Assembly: GCA_002361535.1 (NCBI GenBank)
Contig: DETG01000106.1
Coordinates: 51,529 to 63,003 of the forward strand
DNA from: Prevotella sp. UBA3294
GTDB lineage: Bacteria; Bacteroidota; Bacteroidia; Bacteroidales; Bacteroidaceae
Length of the DNA: 11,475 nt
Reading direction: 5' to 3'
Made by a program: the position numbers and the translations under genes. Position 1 is the first letter of the stretch. Each line of letters starts with the position of its first letter. Positions 294-11,006 of the stretch are shown here, in pieces. Under the pieces are notes generated by a model that worked only from the letters and a program-made list of their open reading frames with translations, was not told where the DNA came from and searched no databases.

Positions 294-2693
294 ATGAAAT
301 TATCAGAGCTGAACACAGGAGAGAAAGGAGTCATCGTAAAGGTGGCGGGCCACGGAGGTTTCCGTAAGCGCATCATAGAGATGGGATTCATTCGGGGGAA
401 GAAGGTAGAGGTATTGCTGAATGCTCCCCTCCAAGATCCTGTTAAATATAAGATTATGGGCTACGAGGTATCGTTACGACACAGCGAAGCCCGACAGATC
501 GAGGTAGTATCCGAAAAAGAATTCTTAGAAGAGCATCCTGACCGTCAGGAAAGTTTGGAGGTGAAGGATGAGACGGATGACGTTGAGAAGAAATGGCACT
601 CGGCAGCACTTAAACGCCGCCGTACGATCAACATCGCGTTGGTGGGCAACCCCAACTGTGGCAAGACCTCCCTCTTCAACTTCGCTTCGGGAGCTCACGA
701 ACGGGTAGGCAACTATAGTGGTGTGACAGTAGATGCGAAAGAAGGAGTAGCCGAATATAAAGGGTATCGTTTCAACCTCGTTGACCTCCCCGGCACCTAT
801 TCGCTCAGTGCCTATAGTCCGGAGGAGCTGTATGTGCGCAAGCAGATTGTGGAGAAAACACCCGATATCATCATCAACGTGATCGACTCCAGTAACCTGG
901 AACGTAATCTCTATCTCACCACACAACTCATTGACATGAACCTCCAGATGGTGGGAGCACTAAACATGTTCGATGAACTGGAGTCACGAGGAGACCGTTT
1001 AGACACCAACAAGTTAGGTGAACTGCTGGGATTCCCGATGGTGCCCACGGTCTTCAAGAGTGGGCGCGGTGTTGACCAACTCTTCCAGACCATCATTCAG
1101 GTATATGAGGGGAAGTTCAAACAGCACAAGGTGCGCCACCTGCATATCAACCACGGCACATATATCGAACAAGGTATCACGGAGATCCAGAAAATCCTGA
1201 AGAAAGACGAGAATATCCGTCAGCAGTTCTCCACCCGCTACCTGGCCATCAAGCTGTTGGAGGGTGACAAAGACATCGAACGCGTGATGGAAGACATGCC
1301 CCAACATCAGGAGATGATCAAGGTGCGTGACAAAGCTGCTGCACTGATCAAGGCAGAGACGAAAGAAGACAGTGAGACAGCCATCATGAACGCGAAGTAC
1401 GGGTTTATCCATGGTGCCTTGGAAGAGGTGGGTTATCAGGAGGGGACACGGAAAGACACCTATCAGATGACCCATGCCTTAGATGCCATCATCACACACC
1501 GGTGGTTAGGATTCCCCCTGTTCTTCTTCTTCCTGTATCTGATGTTCGAGGTGACCTTTACCGTGGGGCAATACCCCATGGACTGGATCGATGCGGGTGT
1601 TGGAGCCCTCTCCGAGTGGCTCAACGGCTTATTGCCCGACGGACCTGTCAAGGCCATGATTGTGGATGGTGCCATCGCCGGTGTGGGGGCTGTAATCATC
1701 TTCCTTCCCCAGATTTTGATCCTCTATACCTTTATCTCGTTCATGGAGGATTCCGGGTATATGGCCCGTGCTGCCTTTATCATGGATAAGCTGATGCACA
1801 AGATGGGAGTTCACGGGAAGTCGTTTATCCCCCTGATCATGGGATTCGGCTGTAACGTGCCTGCCGTGATGGCCACCCGAACCATCGAGAGTCACCGTAG
1901 TAGATTGATCACCATGCTGGTGCTGCCGCTGATGAGTTGTTCTGCCCGCCTACCTATTTATATTATGATTGTGGGAACATTCTTCGCGGTGAAATACCAA
2001 AGTGCCATTATGATCTCACTTTATGTCGTAGGCATCCTCCTGGCTGTCGTCATGAGCAGGATTTTCAGCAAATGGGTGGTGAAAGGCGAGGACACCCCTT
2101 TTGTGATGGAGCTCCCACCCTACCGTTTCCCCACGGCCAAGGCCATCATGCGGCACACCTGGGAGAAAGGTAAACAGTATCTGAAGAAGATGGGAGGTAT
2201 CATCCTTGTGGCCAGCATCATCGTCTGGGCCTTGGGATACTTCCCCCATGATGAGAGTCTGCCCCGACAGGAACAGCAGGAGCAGAGCTATATCGGCAGA
2301 ATCGGTAAGGTGATCGAACCGGTATTCCGTCCGCAGGGCTTTGACTGGAAACTGGATGTGAGTCTGATTGCCGGCGTGGGTGCCAAAGAGATTGTTGCCT
2401 CCACCATGGGTGTGCTCTATGCTGATGATGAGGAAGTGGCCGATGACAGTATCGGCGACCAGAGTGAACGCTACGCCAACCTCCGTCAGAAGATGGAGGC
2501 TAACGGCATCACCCCGCTCATCGCCTTTGCATATCTGTTGTTTGTCTTGATCTACTTCCCTTGCATCGCGACGATAGCGGCCATCAAGGGAGAAACAGGC
2601 TCGTGGAAATGGGCTCTGTTCGCCGCCTGCTATACCACCGTGTTGGCATGGTGCGTATCAGCAGCAGTGTATCAAATAGGAAGAATTATTTAG
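294..2693 (+). CDS. feoB: FeoA-FeoB fusion, GTP-driven ferrous iron transporter
   Basis: Imports Fe2+ across the inner membrane. Residues 1-73 form a FeoA (SH3-like) domain, which in many bacteria is a separate protein; a charged linker (about 74-108) follows. The G domain (about 111-275) shows G1 GNPNCGKT at 118-125, the GVTVD switch at 143-147, G3 DLPG at 164-167 and G4 NMFD at 224-227. A helical GDI-like spacer (about 275-395) leads to the membrane part, with gate motifs GFGCNVPA (517-524), MSCSARLP (547-554) and PCIAT (756-760), all with the expected cysteines. The length of 799 residues fits a full FeoAB fusion with no break. The ATG is preceded by purine-rich sequence but no strong Shine-Dalgarno. 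It has its own promoter, a long leader, and no FeoC-like neighbour. The fusion arrangement is common in Bacteroidales. Confidence 0.97.
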   Translation: MKLSELNTGEKGVIVKVAGHGGFRKRIIEMGFIRGKKVEVLLNAPLQDPVKYKIMGYEVSLRHSEARQIEVVSEKEFLEEHPDRQESLEVKDETDDVEKKWHSAALKRRRTINIALVGNPNCGKTSLFNFASGAHERVGNYSGVTVDAKEGVAEYKGYRFNLVDLPGTYSLSAYSPEELYVRKQIVEKTPDIIINVIDSSNLERNLYLTTQLIDMNLQMVGALNMFDELESRGDRLDTNKLGELLGFPMVPTVFKSGRGVDQLFQTIIQVYEGKFKQHKVRHLHINHGTYIEQGITEIQKILKKDENIRQQFSTRYLAIKLLEGDKDIERVMEDMPQHQEMIKVRDKAAALIKAETKEDSETAIMNAKYGFIHGALEEVGYQEGTRKDTYQMTHALDAIITHRWLGFPLFFFFLYLMFEVTFTVGQYPMDWIDAGVGALSEWLNGLLPDGPVKAMIVDGAIAGVGAVIIFLPQILILYTFISFMEDSGYMARAAFIMDKLMHKMGVHGKSFIPLIMGFGCNVPAVMATRTIESHRSRLITMLVLPLMSCSARLPIYIMIVGTFFAVKYQSAIMISLYVVGILLAVVMSRIFSKWVVKGEDTPFVMELPPYRFPTAKAIMRHTWEKGKQYLKKMGGIILVASIIVWALGYFPHDESLPRQEQQEQSYIGRIGKVIEPVFRPQGFDWKLDVSLIAGVGAKEIVASTMGVLYADDEEVADDSIGDQSERYANLRQKMEANGITPLIAFAYLLFVLIYFPCIATIAAIKGETGSWKWALFAACYTTVLAWCVSAAVYQIGRII

Positions 2694-2780
2694 AGATGAG
2701 AGATGAGAGATGAGAGATGAGAGATGAGAGATGAGAGATGAAAGATGAGAGATATGATTTCTCATCTCTCATTTCTCATT
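2694..2780. repeat. AGATGAG heptamer tract with inverted arm
   Basis: Directly after the feoAB stop codon come eight consecutive heptamers (AGATGAG, with one AGATGAA) at 2694-2749, then complementary CTCATCT/CTCATTT sequence up to 2780. The right arm includes the stop codon and last codons of the minus-strand YkvA gene. The same heptamer family reappears at 10766-11006. The period of 7 is not a multiple of 3 and the tract is intergenic, so it is not coding. The function is unknown; the tract provides a hairpin between convergent genes. Confidence 0.85.
2743..2767. terminator. Hairpin between convergent genes feoAB and YkvA gene
   Basis: AGATGAGA (2743-2750) and TCTCATCT (2760-2767) form a perfect 8-bp inverted repeat with a 9-base loop. 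Because the upstream heptamers are redundant, several registers of longer pairing are possible. There is no strong T-run on either strand, so its role as a bidirectional terminator is inferred from position rather than sequence. Confidence 0.35.
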
Positions 2781-3164
2781 TAAATCAAAGAGTCCATCGA
2801 TCTCCGTGATCTCATCTTCATCGAACCACTTGGAAAGACGTTCGCGCGCTTTTGCCTTGACATCATCGTTCACGTCACCCCATACCTTCTGGAGGACATA
2901 GATCAAGACACCTAAGTCATCACCTAATCCGACAATAGGAATCGCATCTGGAACCACATCAAGCGGACTGATCAGATAGCCCAATGCTCCAATGATAATT
3001 GCCTTATCCTTCACCGATACCTTATCGCTTTGCAGCGTGTAATACAAGATCAGCGCGGCATAAACCAATTTCGCACCAGCGCGCTTGGCGATGCGGGAAA
3101 TCTTTTCCACAAATTCCGTCTTCGAGAATTTGTTCGAATATTGCATAAAATCAGGTAATTCCAT
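2769..3164 (-). CDS. YkvA/DUF1232 family small membrane protein
   Basis: A 131-residue protein with the YkvA/DUF1232 signature: a hydrophobic segment running through GALGYLISPLDVVPDAIP, followed by GLGDDLGVL. Members are small membrane-associated proteins without an assigned biochemical role, so no function is given. The open frame extends to a TTG at 3170, but the ATG at 3164 (protein starting MELPDF) is preferred: it lies about 30 nt from the predicted transcription start. The final residues NEK and the TGA stop are encoded by the edge of the heptamer tract shared with feoAB, so repeat changes could alter the C-terminus. It appears monocistronic, convergent with feoAB and divergent from the candidate RNA. 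Confidence 0.88.
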   Translation of the reverse strand: MELPDFMQYSNKFSKTEFVEKISRIAKRAGAKLVYAALILYYTLQSDKVSVKDKAIIIGALGYLISPLDVVPDAIPIVGLGDDLGVLIYVLQKVWGDVNDDVKAKARERLSKWFDEDEITEIDGLFDLNEK

Positions 3165-3200
3165 ATCCAATCGTTTGATGAGTAATTACAATTACGACGG

Positions 3201-3277: not shown

Positions 3278-3308
3278 TTTGCTACTTCGAAAATAATTTG
3301 TATCTTTG
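3278..3308 (+). promoter_or_regulatory. Strong consensus promoter of the candidate RNA
   Basis: TTTG at 3278-3281, a spacer of exactly 19 bases, and TATCTTTG at 3301-3308 give a full match to the Bacteroidota housekeeping promoter. The predicted start is about 3311-3314, a few bases before the closing helix of the structured RNA. It is back to back with the YkvA promoter. Confidence 0.75.
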
Positions 3309-3311
3309 CAA

Positions 3312-3509
3312 TGGATTACAGGCCGTATCGGTTCGATCGGGATACTCATCAAATAACATCGAAAACCGAGAAGGCTTCTCTTGCTAATGGCGGGCCACAT
3401 AAACCGTGAAAACGGCCAAGCTGTAAAGCCGGTGGATTACAAAGGCGGAGAGCGCTCAAATCATTTCTGCTCGGAGTTTCATCACATCATCGATACGGCC
3501 TCTTTTTTT
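3312..3509 (+). ncRNA. Candidate structured RNA of about 200 nt (6S-like or ribE leader)
   Basis: The segment is non-coding. Its ends pair perfectly: GGCCGTATCG (3321-3330) with CGATACGGCC (3491-3500), followed by TCTTTTTTT (3501-3509). I see no local hairpin before the T-run, so the long-range closing helix itself would serve as terminator stem. Inside are GGTTCGAT/ATCGA-AA-ACC (from 3330 to 3367), hairpin GAGAA-GGC-TTCTC (3368-3380), hairpin CCGT-GAAA-ACGG with a GNRA loop (3404-3415), and a possible CCGAG/CTCGG helix (3366-3370 with 3470-3474); some of these are mutually exclusive. Own promoter, about 195-nt length, end-closing helix and poly-U resemble a stand-alone RNA such as 6S. Since ribE follows with no clear promoter, a cis-regulatory leader is also possible. 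It lacks the conserved FMN-riboswitch sequences I know. Confidence 0.6.
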
Positions 3510-3556: not shown

Positions 3557-4162
3557 ATGTTTTCTGGAATTATTGAGGAATTTGCAAAGGTTGTGGCCAT
3601 CAAGCACGACAAAGAGAATATTGATTTCACCCTGACATGCTCGTTTGTGGAGGAACTCACCATTGATCAGAGTGTGGCCCACAACGGTGTCTGTCTGACT
3701 GTTGTGGAGATCAAAGACGGTACCTACACGGTGACCGCCATGAAAGAGACACTGGAGCGTTCGAATCTCGGTCTCCTTCAGGTTGGTGACAAGGTGAACG
3801 TGGAACGTTCGATGTTGATGAACGGCCGCCTTGATGGTCATATCGTTCAAGGACATGTGGACATGACCGCCACTTGTATCGACATGGAGGACGCTGACGG
3901 CAGTACCTATTTCACTTTCCAGTATCCCTACGACCAGCAGATGGCAAAGCGCGGATATTTCACCGTTGACAAAGGAAGTGTCACCGTGAATGGTGTTTCG
4001 CTGACTGTATGCAATCCTACGGAAGATACGTTCCAGGTGGCCATCATCCCCTACACGTTTGAACATACGAATTTCTGCGATATCCATGTTGGAACAAAAG
4101 TCAACCTGGAATTTGACATCTTGGGGAAATATATCGCCCGTCTCCAATCACTAAGCCGTTGA
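3557..4162 (+). CDS. ribE: Riboflavin synthase alpha chain
   Basis: Catalyses the last step of riboflavin synthesis, dismutation of two 6,7-dimethyl-8-ribityllumazine molecules. The protein has 201 residues, the usual length, and consists of two lumazine-binding repeats. Repeat 1 starts with the hallmark MFSGIIEE and contains SVAHNGVCLTV; repeat 2 starts near GHIVQGHVD and contains GSVTVNGVSLTV. The ATG at the MFSG start is secure. No other riboflavin gene is present, so it is unlinked from ribD, ribBA and ribH. It lies 47 bases after the T-run of the candidate RNA with no clear promoter of its own, which suggests either read-through from the RNA promoter or a promoter I cannot recognise. The 22-bp repeat array lies downstream. 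Confidence 0.96.
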   Translation: MFSGIIEEFAKVVAIKHDKENIDFTLTCSFVEELTIDQSVAHNGVCLTVVEIKDGTYTVTAMKETLERSNLGLLQVGDKVNVERSMLMNGRLDGHIVQGHVDMTATCIDMEDADGSTYFTFQYPYDQQMAKRGYFTVDKGSVTVNGVSLTVCNPTEDTFQVAIIPYTFEHTNFCDIHVGTKVNLEFDILGKYIARLQSLSR

Positions 4163-4178: not shown

Positions 4179-4354
4179 GTTTCACTTGAGCATACCATTT
4201 GCACCAGTTGAGCTGATTTTACGCATCAGTTGAGCTGGTCTTTTGCATCATTAGTGCAACCTATCTGCACACTTTGTGCAAGCCATCCGCACACTTTGTG
4301 CAAGCCATCTGCACACTTTGTGCAAGCCCTTTGCACCAATGGTACATCCGTCAT
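4179..4354. repeat. Array of degenerate 22-bp tandem repeats
   Basis: Units start at 4201, 4223, 4245, 4267, 4289, 4311 and 4333, with a further diverged one at 4179; every start is exactly 22 bases from the next. Units 4-6 are nearly identical and begin GCACACTTTGTGC followed by AAGCC. Units 1 and 2 begin GCACCAGTTGAGC and GCATCAGTTGAGC; the 4179 unit keeps TTGAGC in the same phase. Inside the central units GCACA and TGTGC form a perfect dyad around CTT, and the last unit has ACCA-A-TGGT instead, so symmetry persists although bases change. No spacers, no open frame, no poly-T. Function unknown; candidates are a repeat family of Bacteroidales, protein-binding array or transcript end structure. 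Confidence 0.8.
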
Positions 4355-9739: not shown

Positions 9740-10765
9740 ATGAAAAGATTCTCATCACGCAAATACACAATACCCGCAGGTTGCTGTCTGCTGGTCATTC
9801 TGGGCATCGTTTACTATTTCTTCTTCTCGGACATCAGTACCCAGAAGGAAACGGCCTATGTCTATATCGATGACGATGACACCATCGACAGTGTCTTCAC
9901 CAAAGTGAAACCACTGTCAACCAGTGCAGGTATGACAGGGTTCTCCACCTTGATGCGACACTCATCCTACAGTGAGCATGTACGAACGGGCCGCTATGCC
10001 ATCGAACCCGGCGACGGAGCGTTCACTGTGTTCCGCCGGATCAAGAACGGATTACAGACGCCCTTGAACCTCACTATCCCCTCGGTACGCACCCTCGACC
10101 GATTGGCTGGTGCTGTAGCCACGAAGCTGATGCTCGACAGTGCATCCCTCTATGAAGCACTGACGGATGAAAAGGTATGCGAGCAACTGGGCTACGACAC
10201 CGCCACCGTGGCGTGTATGTTCATTCCCAACACCTACGACGTGTACTGGAATATCTCGCAGGAGAAGTTCCTCGAAAGAATGAAGAAAGAGAGTGAGAAA
10301 TTCTGGAACGATGAACGTCTCGACAAGGCTGAACGCATGCACTTCTCCCCACAGCAGGTGATCACCCTTGCCAGCATCGTGGATGAAGAGACGGCCAATG
10401 ATGCCGAGAAACCCATGGTAGCAGGCATGTATATCAACCGACTAAATGCCGATATGCCACTGCAGGCTGACCCCACCATCAAATTCGCCCTGAAAGATTT
10501 CTCCCTGAAACGGATCTATAACAACATGCTGTCCGTGAACAGTCCATATAACACCTACCGTAACAAAGGACTGCCTCCTGGTCCTATCCGTATTCCCACC
10601 GTGGCAGGAATCGATGCCGTACTCGACCATGTTCACCACACCTATTTATATATGTGTGCCAAAGAGGACTTCAGCGGAACACATAATTTCGCACGAACCT
10701 ATACCGAACATCTGGCCAATGCAGCGAAGTATGCCGCCGCATTGAACCAAAGAGGAATCAAGTGA
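9740..10765 (+). CDS. mltG: MltG/YceG endolytic murein transglycosylase
   Basis: Cleaves nascent peptidoglycan glycan strands at the outer face of the inner membrane and so sets strand ends. The 341-residue protein has an N-terminal membrane anchor (about 12-29) and an extracytoplasmic part with a LysM-like region (about 38-105) and the YceG catalytic domain (about 110-335). The motif ASIVDEET (211-218) contains Glu217, aligned with catalytic Glu218 of Escherichia coli MltG (ASIIEKET). Further family marks are NRLNADMPLQADPT, NTYRNKGLPPGPI and FARTYTEH. The cysteines in GCCLLV lie in the membrane helix and I do not read them as a lipobox. The gene is alone, with its own promoter, divergent from malQ. 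Its stop codon abuts a heptamer repeat tract, as that of feoAB does. Confidence 0.95.
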   Translation: MKRFSSRKYTIPAGCCLLVILGIVYYFFFSDISTQKETAYVYIDDDDTIDSVFTKVKPLSTSAGMTGFSTLMRHSSYSEHVRTGRYAIEPGDGAFTVFRRIKNGLQTPLNLTIPSVRTLDRLAGAVATKLMLDSASLYEALTDEKVCEQLGYDTATVACMFIPNTYDVYWNISQEKFLERMKKESEKFWNDERLDKAERMHFSPQQVITLASIVDEETANDAEKPMVAGMYINRLNADMPLQADPTIKFALKDFSLKRIYNNMLSVNSPYNTYRNKGLPPGPIRIPTVAGIDAVLDHVHHTYLYMCAKEDFSGTHNFARTYTEHLANAAKYAAALNQRGIK

Positions 10766-11006
10766 AAGATGAGAGATGAGAGATGAAAGATGAGAGATAT
10801 GATTACCACTAAGGACTTGGTCTTGGGGACTCCCCGCCTATCGTAGGGGCGGAGCTGGGGGCGGCCTCAGTAATCATACCTCTCATCTCTCATTTCTCAT
10901 CTCTCATCTTTCATCTCTCATCTTTCATCTCTCCTCTTTCATCTCTCCTCTCTCCTCTCTCATCTTTCATCTCCCATCTCTCATCTTTCATCTTTTATTA
11001 TTCATT
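10766..11006. repeat. Composite intergenic element: heptamer arms around a GC-rich hairpin
   Basis: This fills most of the 471-base gap between mltG and gdhA. Left arm: heptamers AAGATGA/GAGATGA at 10766-10793, leading into ATGATTAC (10799-10806). Core: GC-rich copy B (10829-10873), sharing ACTCCCC, ATCGTAGGGG and TCAGTAA with 215-269. Right arm: GTAATCAT (10870-10877), then about 18 heptamers of TCTCATC, TTTCATC or TCTCCTC type (10881-11006), complementary to the left arm. The arms form an interrupted inverted repeat. After it come A/T-rich sequence and the gdhA control region. No open reading frame, transposase or target-site duplication is visible. Confidence 0.8.

What the first reader, a model, noticed from the sequence alone, without database searches (positions are those of the whole stretch)
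3312..3509. Candidate structured RNA closed by a 10-bp end-to-end helix with its own consensus promoter
The promoter TTTG-N19-TATCTTTG places the transcript start at about 3312; nine bases later a 10-base arm begins that is perfectly complementary to the last 10 bases before a T-rich run. A perfect match of this length joining the ends of a 180-nt span and directly followed by T7 is unlikely by chance. Internal hairpins include a GNRA-capped one. Length and end-closing helix resemble 6S RNA, but I could not identify the central bubble, so it may be a divergent 6S or a new family.
Basis: partly seen in the sequence, partly recalled or inferred. Interest (0 to 1): 0.8.

Follow-up and report, generated by a model that had tools for sequence, protein, structure and literature searches.

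The report
Bacteroidales 6S RNA gene (Bacteroidales-1)
This stretch encodes a copy of a known small RNA of Bacteroidales bacteria that very probably works as their 6S RNA, a decoy that ties up the transcription machinery; comparison with relatives adds two paired regions to its shape and links it to the 6S RNA of a neighbouring bacterial group.

Summary
In detail: promoter TTTG-N19-TATCTTTG, a perfect 10-bp end-to-end helix (3321-3330 with 3491-3500) and a T-run. But it is not a new family. Window 3321-3506 matches Rfam RF01693, Bacteroidales-1, end to end (148.5 bits, cut-off 60), which Rfam already titles '6S-Bacteroidales RNA suggested'. It occurs in 118 of 121 genomes of the host's family.

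Added here: (1) the closing helix, absent from Rfam's consensus structure, is real: 10 of 11 pairs show changes on both sides, 99% of cells pair. (3) A model built only from this RNA's family matched all 7 loci that Rfam's separate 6S-Flavo model had found in 198 class genomes. A joint model found 61 of those 198 genomes, against 19 for the two Rfam models together.

Best reading: 6S RNA, an RNA-polymerase decoy. Polymerase binding and product RNAs are inferred, and no covariance-model match to canonical 6S (RF00013) was found. The object is known; the structural revision is moderately interesting.

The parts
3278..3308 (+). Promoter of Bacteroidota type: TTTG (3278-3281), 19-nt spacer, TATCTTTG (3301-3308)
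   Evidence: Sequence; TAnnTTTG at a comparable place in 54 of 71 family loci, about 1.9 expected
3321..3506 (+). RF01693 Bacteroidales-1 RNA, whole model; proposed 6S RNA
   Evidence: 148.5 bits, cut-off 60
3321..3331 (+). P1 closing helix, 5' strand GGCCGTATCGG
   Evidence: 10 of 11 pairs with changes on both sides in 37 sequences, 99.0% of cells paired
3490..3500 (+). P1 closing helix, 3' strand TCGATACGGCC
   Evidence: As above; also found by RNAalifold in 53 sequences
3341..3347 (+). P2, 5' strand GATACTC (U3343-U3478 is a mismatch in the window)
   Evidence: Compensatory changes among relatives
3474..3480 (+). P2, 3' strand GAGTTTC
   Evidence: Compensatory changes among relatives
3348..3374 (+). 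5' strand of the central bubble, with the conserved ATCAA; proposed pRNA start region (inference)
   Evidence: Between P2 and the internal stem; conserved columns
3454..3473 (+). 3' strand of the central bubble, with the conserved CTCAAAT
   Evidence: Between the internal stem and P2; conserved columns
3375..3453 (+). Internal (apical) stem, outer strands 3375-3399 and 3432-3453, with conserved GGCGGGCC and GGATTACAAAG and a variable tip holding the GNRA hairpin 3404-3415
   Evidence: 10 of 15 pairs with changes on both sides (helices 3 and 4)
3501..3509 (+). T-rich run TCTTTTTTT, likely transcription end
   Evidence: Sequence; at least 8 T of 16 in 42 of 71 family loci, without a chance control

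Best explanation
The gene makes the 6S RNA of this Bacteroidales bacterium, a member of RF01693. Transcribed from its own promoter, the RNA of about 190 nt folds into a rod: closing helix P1, a small internal loop, helix P2, a central bubble (27 nt / 20 nt) and an internal stem. It imitates an opened promoter, so that RNA polymerase with its housekeeping sigma factor binds it and is held off real promoters when growth slows. When nucleotides return, polymerase transcribes a short product RNA (pRNA) from the 5' bubble strand into the P2 strand, which opens P2 and releases the enzyme. Shown here by computation: family membership, promoter, P1, P2 (in relatives), internal stem, single copy, presence in nearly all sampled genomes of the family, homology with 6S-Flavo. 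Inferred by analogy: polymerase binding, pRNA start and direction, refolding, growth-phase role.
For: RF01693 at 148.5 bits; Rfam's own title suggests 6S. 118 of 121 family genomes have it, while canonical 6S RF00013 is found in the own genome not at all and in 0 of 198 class genomes. Closing stem, central bubble and apical stem as in the 6S description of PMC8876501 (passages), with covariation. Homology with 6S-Flavo: loci in G141 and G282 are hit by both Rfam models at the same place, and R1 hits all 7 loci found with RF01685 at 25.3-55.5 bits, best unrelated match 12.9. Own promoter in 54 of 71 loci. B. thetaiotaomicron is reported to express a 6S RNA with pRNA and pRNA* (PMC7366714, passages).
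Against: No covariance-model match to canonical 6S in either direction: RF00013 absent from the window at E up to 10, R2 gives E. coli ssrS 4.2 bits. Energy folding of the window alone does not form P2, and P2 has a U-U mismatch in the window and in 21 of 53 rows in all. Competing helices that could serve a release switch show little or no covariation. 3 of 121 family genomes and 137 of 198 class genomes gave no match. The link between the published B. thetaiotaomicron 6S RNA and RF01693 was not checked.
Confidence: 0.85

Rival explanations
1. It is a cis-acting leader of ribE (riboflavin synthase), such as an FMN riboswitch or an attenuator, because it ends about 50 nt before the ribE start codon.
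For: ribE starts at 3557; RibE lies near the RNA in all seven sampled genomes of the host genus. Weinberg 2010 left 'cis-reg' open for this motif (table).
Against: RibE is found near 8 of 71 family loci only, the host genus plus one contig of a mixed bin; seven of the 71 loci have under 1 kb of downstream sequence, so the test is weak for them. No FMN riboswitch match. Own promoter and a T-run before ribE.
Confidence: 0.03
2. It is a structured RNA of the RF01693 family with another function than 6S (a base-pairing sRNA, or an RNA sequestering another protein); the 6S resemblance is convergent.
For: No covariance-model bridge to canonical 6S. The internal-stem loop GGCGGGCC / GGAUUACAAAG is unusually conserved, which a pure promoter mimic would not obviously need.
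Against: Homology with 6S-Flavo, 6S-like rod with a covarying closing stem, near-universal single copy in the family, no other 6S candidate found.
Confidence: 0.11
3. The helix and T-run are a chance arrangement in intergenic DNA.
For: Perfect 10-bp matches at this spacing occur 0.7 times per shuffled window; folding z-scores are modest.
Against: Rfam match at E 7e-26 and extensive compensatory change.
Confidence: 0.01

Closest known systems
RF01693 Bacteroidales-1 (6S-Bacteroidales RNA suggested)
   Same: Whole-model match at 148.5 bits; internal stem and conserved motifs
   Different: Rfam's consensus structure leaves both ends unpaired; P1 and P2 are added here
RF01685 6S-Flavo
   Same: Homologous: shared ACUCAAC...GGAGUUU ends, P1 and P2, two loci hit by both Rfam models
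   Different: The window itself is not matched by RF01685 at E up to 10; the RF01685 model is 108 positions and stops short of the closing helix; Rfam 15 shows no shared clan (clan column '-')
RF00013 6S / SsrS RNA (canonical 6S)
   Same: Length, rod with closing stem, central bubble and apical stem, stand-alone transcript
   Different: No covariance-model match in either direction; 0 of 198 class genomes

Membership tests
RF01693 Bacteroidales-1 | Covariance-model score above the curated cut-off over the whole model | tested here: met
   148.5 bits against 60, positions 1-179 of 179
RF01685 6S-Flavo | Covariance-model score above the curated cut-off | tested here: not met
   No match of the window at E up to 10; homology only through intermediate loci
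RF00013 canonical 6S | Covariance-model score above the curated cut-off | tested here: not met
   No match in the window or own genome; R2 against E. coli ssrS 4.2 bits
6S RNA (functional class) | RNA of about 200 nt, closing stem of both ends, central bubble, apical stem | tested here: met
   Covariation of P1, P2 and internal stem; definition from PMC8876501 (passages). The bubble is placed by inference from these helices.
6S RNA (functional class) | Binds RNA polymerase with the housekeeping sigma factor | not testable with these tools
   Needs co-immunoprecipitation or a gel-shift assay
6S RNA (functional class) | Serves as template for product RNAs (pRNA) | not testable with these tools
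   Reported for the B. thetaiotaomicron 6S RNA (PMC7366714, passages); identity of that RNA with RF01693 not checked
FMN riboswitch / ribE leader | Rfam match and conserved position before riboflavin genes | tested here: not met
   No FMN match; RibE near 8 of 71 family loci

The most novel reading that the evidence does not exclude
Bacteroidales-1 and 6S-Flavo are pieces of one 6S RNA family that reaches across the class Bacteroidia and that the two Rfam models mostly miss outside Bacteroidales and some flavobacteria. Its closing helix P1 and bubble-bounding helix P2 are missing from both Rfam models. The strongly conserved GGCGGGCC / GGAUUACAAAG loop of the internal stem lies roughly where a -33 element would lie relative to the bubble, and may be how this RNA imitates the unusual Bacteroidota promoter.
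Probability: 0.6. Interest if true: 0.5.

Novelty: already known. Interest (0 to 1): 0.33.

Why it matters
The locus is a copy of a described family. The comparison is more useful: it gives a covariation-supported whole-molecule structure for the likely 6S RNA of a phylum with non-standard promoters, ties two Rfam families together, and yields a model that raises detection in sampled class genomes from 19 to 61 of 198. That makes it testable how a 6S RNA imitates a TTTG / TAnnTTTG promoter.

Tried and rejected
New RNA family: rejected, RF01693. FMN riboswitch or ribE leader: rejected. tRNA or tmRNA: none in the window. Energy-only evidence: weak. A refolding switch between P2 and competing short helices (CUC/GAG, CCG/CGG, GGG/CCG): counted on 72 rows; at most 4 rows per pair changed on both sides and 2-21 rows per pair were broken (58 for the extension CCGAG/CUCGG), so not supported. 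Homology to E. coli 6S by model: none.

Row choices that affect counts: alignment A1 holds 53 sequences (the window and 52 of the other family loci L002-L071). A2 holds 37; I left out rows whose closing helix has another sequence (for example L046, L056, L058, L059, L064, L065), hard-to-align rows (for example L038, L041, L045, L052, L066) and some near-duplicates. A4 (72 rows) takes back eight of these: L038, L041, L045, L046, L052, L056, L064, L066. A4 was fitted to the model's structure, so its pair counts lean towards it. In one search, 9 of 71 loci (L043, L046, L049, L053, L058, L059, L064, L065, L069) had closing duplexes that 8-49 of 200 shuffles matched. In A2 one P2 pair (columns 28/180) is misaligned by a gap, so P2 is judged.

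Counts that go the other way: model R1 over the class found 13 of 198 genomes, fewer than RF01693 with 14, and missed G141, which one search then scored 55.5 bits; over the order it found 52 of 198 against 48. Searches over 40 genomes score only the top candidates with strict filters. Of 20 class genomes without a match searched again with laxer filters, 2 gave a weak match; the 3 family genomes without a match gave none. 137 of 198 class genomes had no match, so class-wide presence is not shown.

Papers: Weinberg 2010 (PMC2864571), Ryan 2020 (PMC7366714), PMC9723704, PMC5771137, PMC6808178, PMC8876501 and PMC7160235 were seen as passages only; PMC10994844 was searched for 6S and pRNA terms and gave none. 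Wehner 2014 (PMC4615782) and 10.1111/mmi.14793 are not held; the first is known from Ryan's reference list, the second is recalled. Whether the P1/P2 structure or the link to 6S-Flavo is in print elsewhere is unknown. In the held library one paper has '6S-Flavo' and none '6S-Bacteroidales'; three have 'Bacteroidales-1', one of them as a taxon label.

Full report
What is there. The finding's coordinates hold a Bacteroidota-type promoter (TTTG 3278-3281, 19-nt spacer, TATCTTTG 3301-3308), a perfect 10-bp match between 3321-3330 and 3491-3500, and a T-run at 3503-3509, two bases after it. Rfam identifies 3321-3506 as RF01693, Bacteroidales-1, over the whole model at 148.5 bits (cut-off 60), the only match in the window over a cut-off. 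Rfam's description reads '6S-Bacteroidales RNA suggested'. With E-values up to 10 only one chance-level match is added (a microRNA family far below its cut-off); neither canonical 6S (RF00013) nor 6S-Flavo (RF01685) appears.

Surroundings. Upstream lie feoB fused to a FeoA domain (294-2693) and, on the other strand, a DUF1232 gene (2769-3170). Downstream lie ribE (3557-4162), a histidine kinase (PF06580) and a LytTR response regulator; then, on the other strand, a HAD enzyme like phosphoglycolate phosphatase and a 4-alpha-glucanotransferase; then an mltG-like gene. The own genome (2.73 Mb, 133 contigs, 81% complete) has one copy and no RF00013 match.

Spread. RF01693 is found in 118 of 121 genomes of the host's family, one copy each except one genome with three (G065), probably a mixed bin. 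Gene neighbours are not kept: RibE is near 8 of 71 family loci, namely the seven genomes of the host genus (the window's included) and one contig of G065; seven of the 71 loci hold under 1 kb downstream. So the RNA is not in general a ribE leader. The promoter element is kept in 54 of 71 loci against 1.9 expected.

Closing helix. Rfam's structure line leaves the ends unpaired. Across 37 family sequences 10 of 11 closing pairs show changes on both sides and 99.0% of cells pair; sliding every partner by one to three columns drops the whole structure from 95.1% to 40-48%. RNAalifold predicts the same helix without being told in 53 sequences. A duplex test on the 71 family loci gave a closing helix matched by at most 3 of 200 shuffles in 62 and by 8-49 in 9. 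In one clade the helix has quite another sequence (AGCCGGG...CCCGGCU), which suggests that pairing, not sequence, is kept.

P2 and the central bubble. GAAACUC and GAGUUUC face each other inside the closing helix. In 53 sequences one pair is C-G turned G-C in 2 rows and another A-U turned G-C in 3 rows; at the latter pair 21 of 53 rows, the window among them, have a U-U mismatch. In distant relatives both strands are rewritten together: UUUUUUGA/UCAAAAAA (L092), AAAAACCU/AGGUUUUU (L075), GAAAAUUC/GAAUUUU (L121). On the 72-row model alignment all 33 pairs of the structure have changes on both sides and 94.3% of cells pair (the alignment is fitted to the structure and leans that way). Energy folding of the window alone prefers local hairpins to P2, so P2 rests on the relatives.

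Link to 6S-Flavo. In 198 genomes of the class RF01693 found 14 (6 over its cut-off) and RF01685 found 7 (1 over its cut-off); G141 and G282 were found by both at the same place (again). G282's locus passes the 6S-Flavo cut-off (96.8 bits against 85) but scores 38.3 bits with RF01693, below that cut-off. Model R1, built only from 37 RNAs of the host family with P1 and P2, matched all 7 loci found with RF01685, end to end, at 25.3-55.5 bits; the best unrelated match in that call had 12.9. The 21 order- and class-level loci tested for a closing duplex, six of the seven 6S-Flavo loci under their own locus ids and the seventh (G141) as L077, all had one matched by at most 4 of 200 shuffles. A joint model R2 (72 sequences) found 61 of 198 class genomes, one match each, among them all 19 that either Rfam model had found; 18 of the 61 genomes supplied training sequences, 43 did not. 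In a draw of 198 genomes of the phylum, partly the same genomes, it found 29, one of them outside the class at E 7e-5. RF00013 found 0 of the 198 class genomes while it rang in four control genomes, E. coli and B. subtilis among them.

How it probably works. The anatomy is that of 6S RNA as described in PMC8876501 (passages): about 200 nt, rod-shaped, a central bubble between a closing stem and an apical stem, both broken by small loops. By analogy the bubble poses as an opened promoter and holds sigma-bearing RNA polymerase. In B. subtilis 6S-1 the pRNA starts at nt 40 and a weakened P2 helix, together with a stabilised collapse helix, eases release (same passages). The same layout here predicts a pRNA starting just 3' of P2, around 3348-3352, and running into the P2 strand. 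For B. thetaiotaomicron, detection of the Bacteroides 6S RNA with evidence of pRNA and pRNA* is reported (PMC7366714, passages); I could not check that this RNA is the RF01693 locus. Polymerase binding, pRNA start and refolding are inferences here.

What stays open. There is no covariance-model bridge to canonical 6S: R2 scored E. coli ssrS at 4.2 bits, where RF00013 scores 139.8. Short competing helices that might serve a release switch show little or no covariation. 137 of 198 class genomes and 3 of 121 family genomes gave no match; laxer filters rescued 2 of the 20 class genomes tried and none of the three.

Verdict. The value added is a better supported structure and the link between two Rfam families, which I could not compare with two papers that are not held.

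Noticed in passing
window 3174-3184 and 3343-3353: The 11-mer TTTGATGAGTA just upstream of the DUF1232 gene is the exact reverse complement of the RNA's P2 and 5' bubble strand TACTCATCAAA, so the minus strand there carries the same 11-mer as the RNA. Possibly chance.
   Followed up: no
window 2692-2753, 10763-10798, 10880-10995: Arrays of 7-bp units of one kind (AGAGATG / TGAGAGA, and its complement CTCTCAT) in three places between genes.
   Followed up: no
window 4198-4336: Two arrays of 22-bp repeats directly after ribE.
   Followed up: no
window 294-2693: FeoB with a FeoA domain fused at its N-terminus.
   Followed up: no
genome G065 (loci L068, L069, L070): Three different RF01693 copies in one draft genome, one of them beside a ribE 85% identical to the window's; most likely a mixed bin.
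   Followed up: partly
closing helix in loci L043, L046, L053, L056, L058, L059, L064, L065, L068, L069: A clade in which the closing helix has been replaced by another, G/C-rich sequence with a 2-5-nt bulge on the 5' strand.
   Followed up: partly
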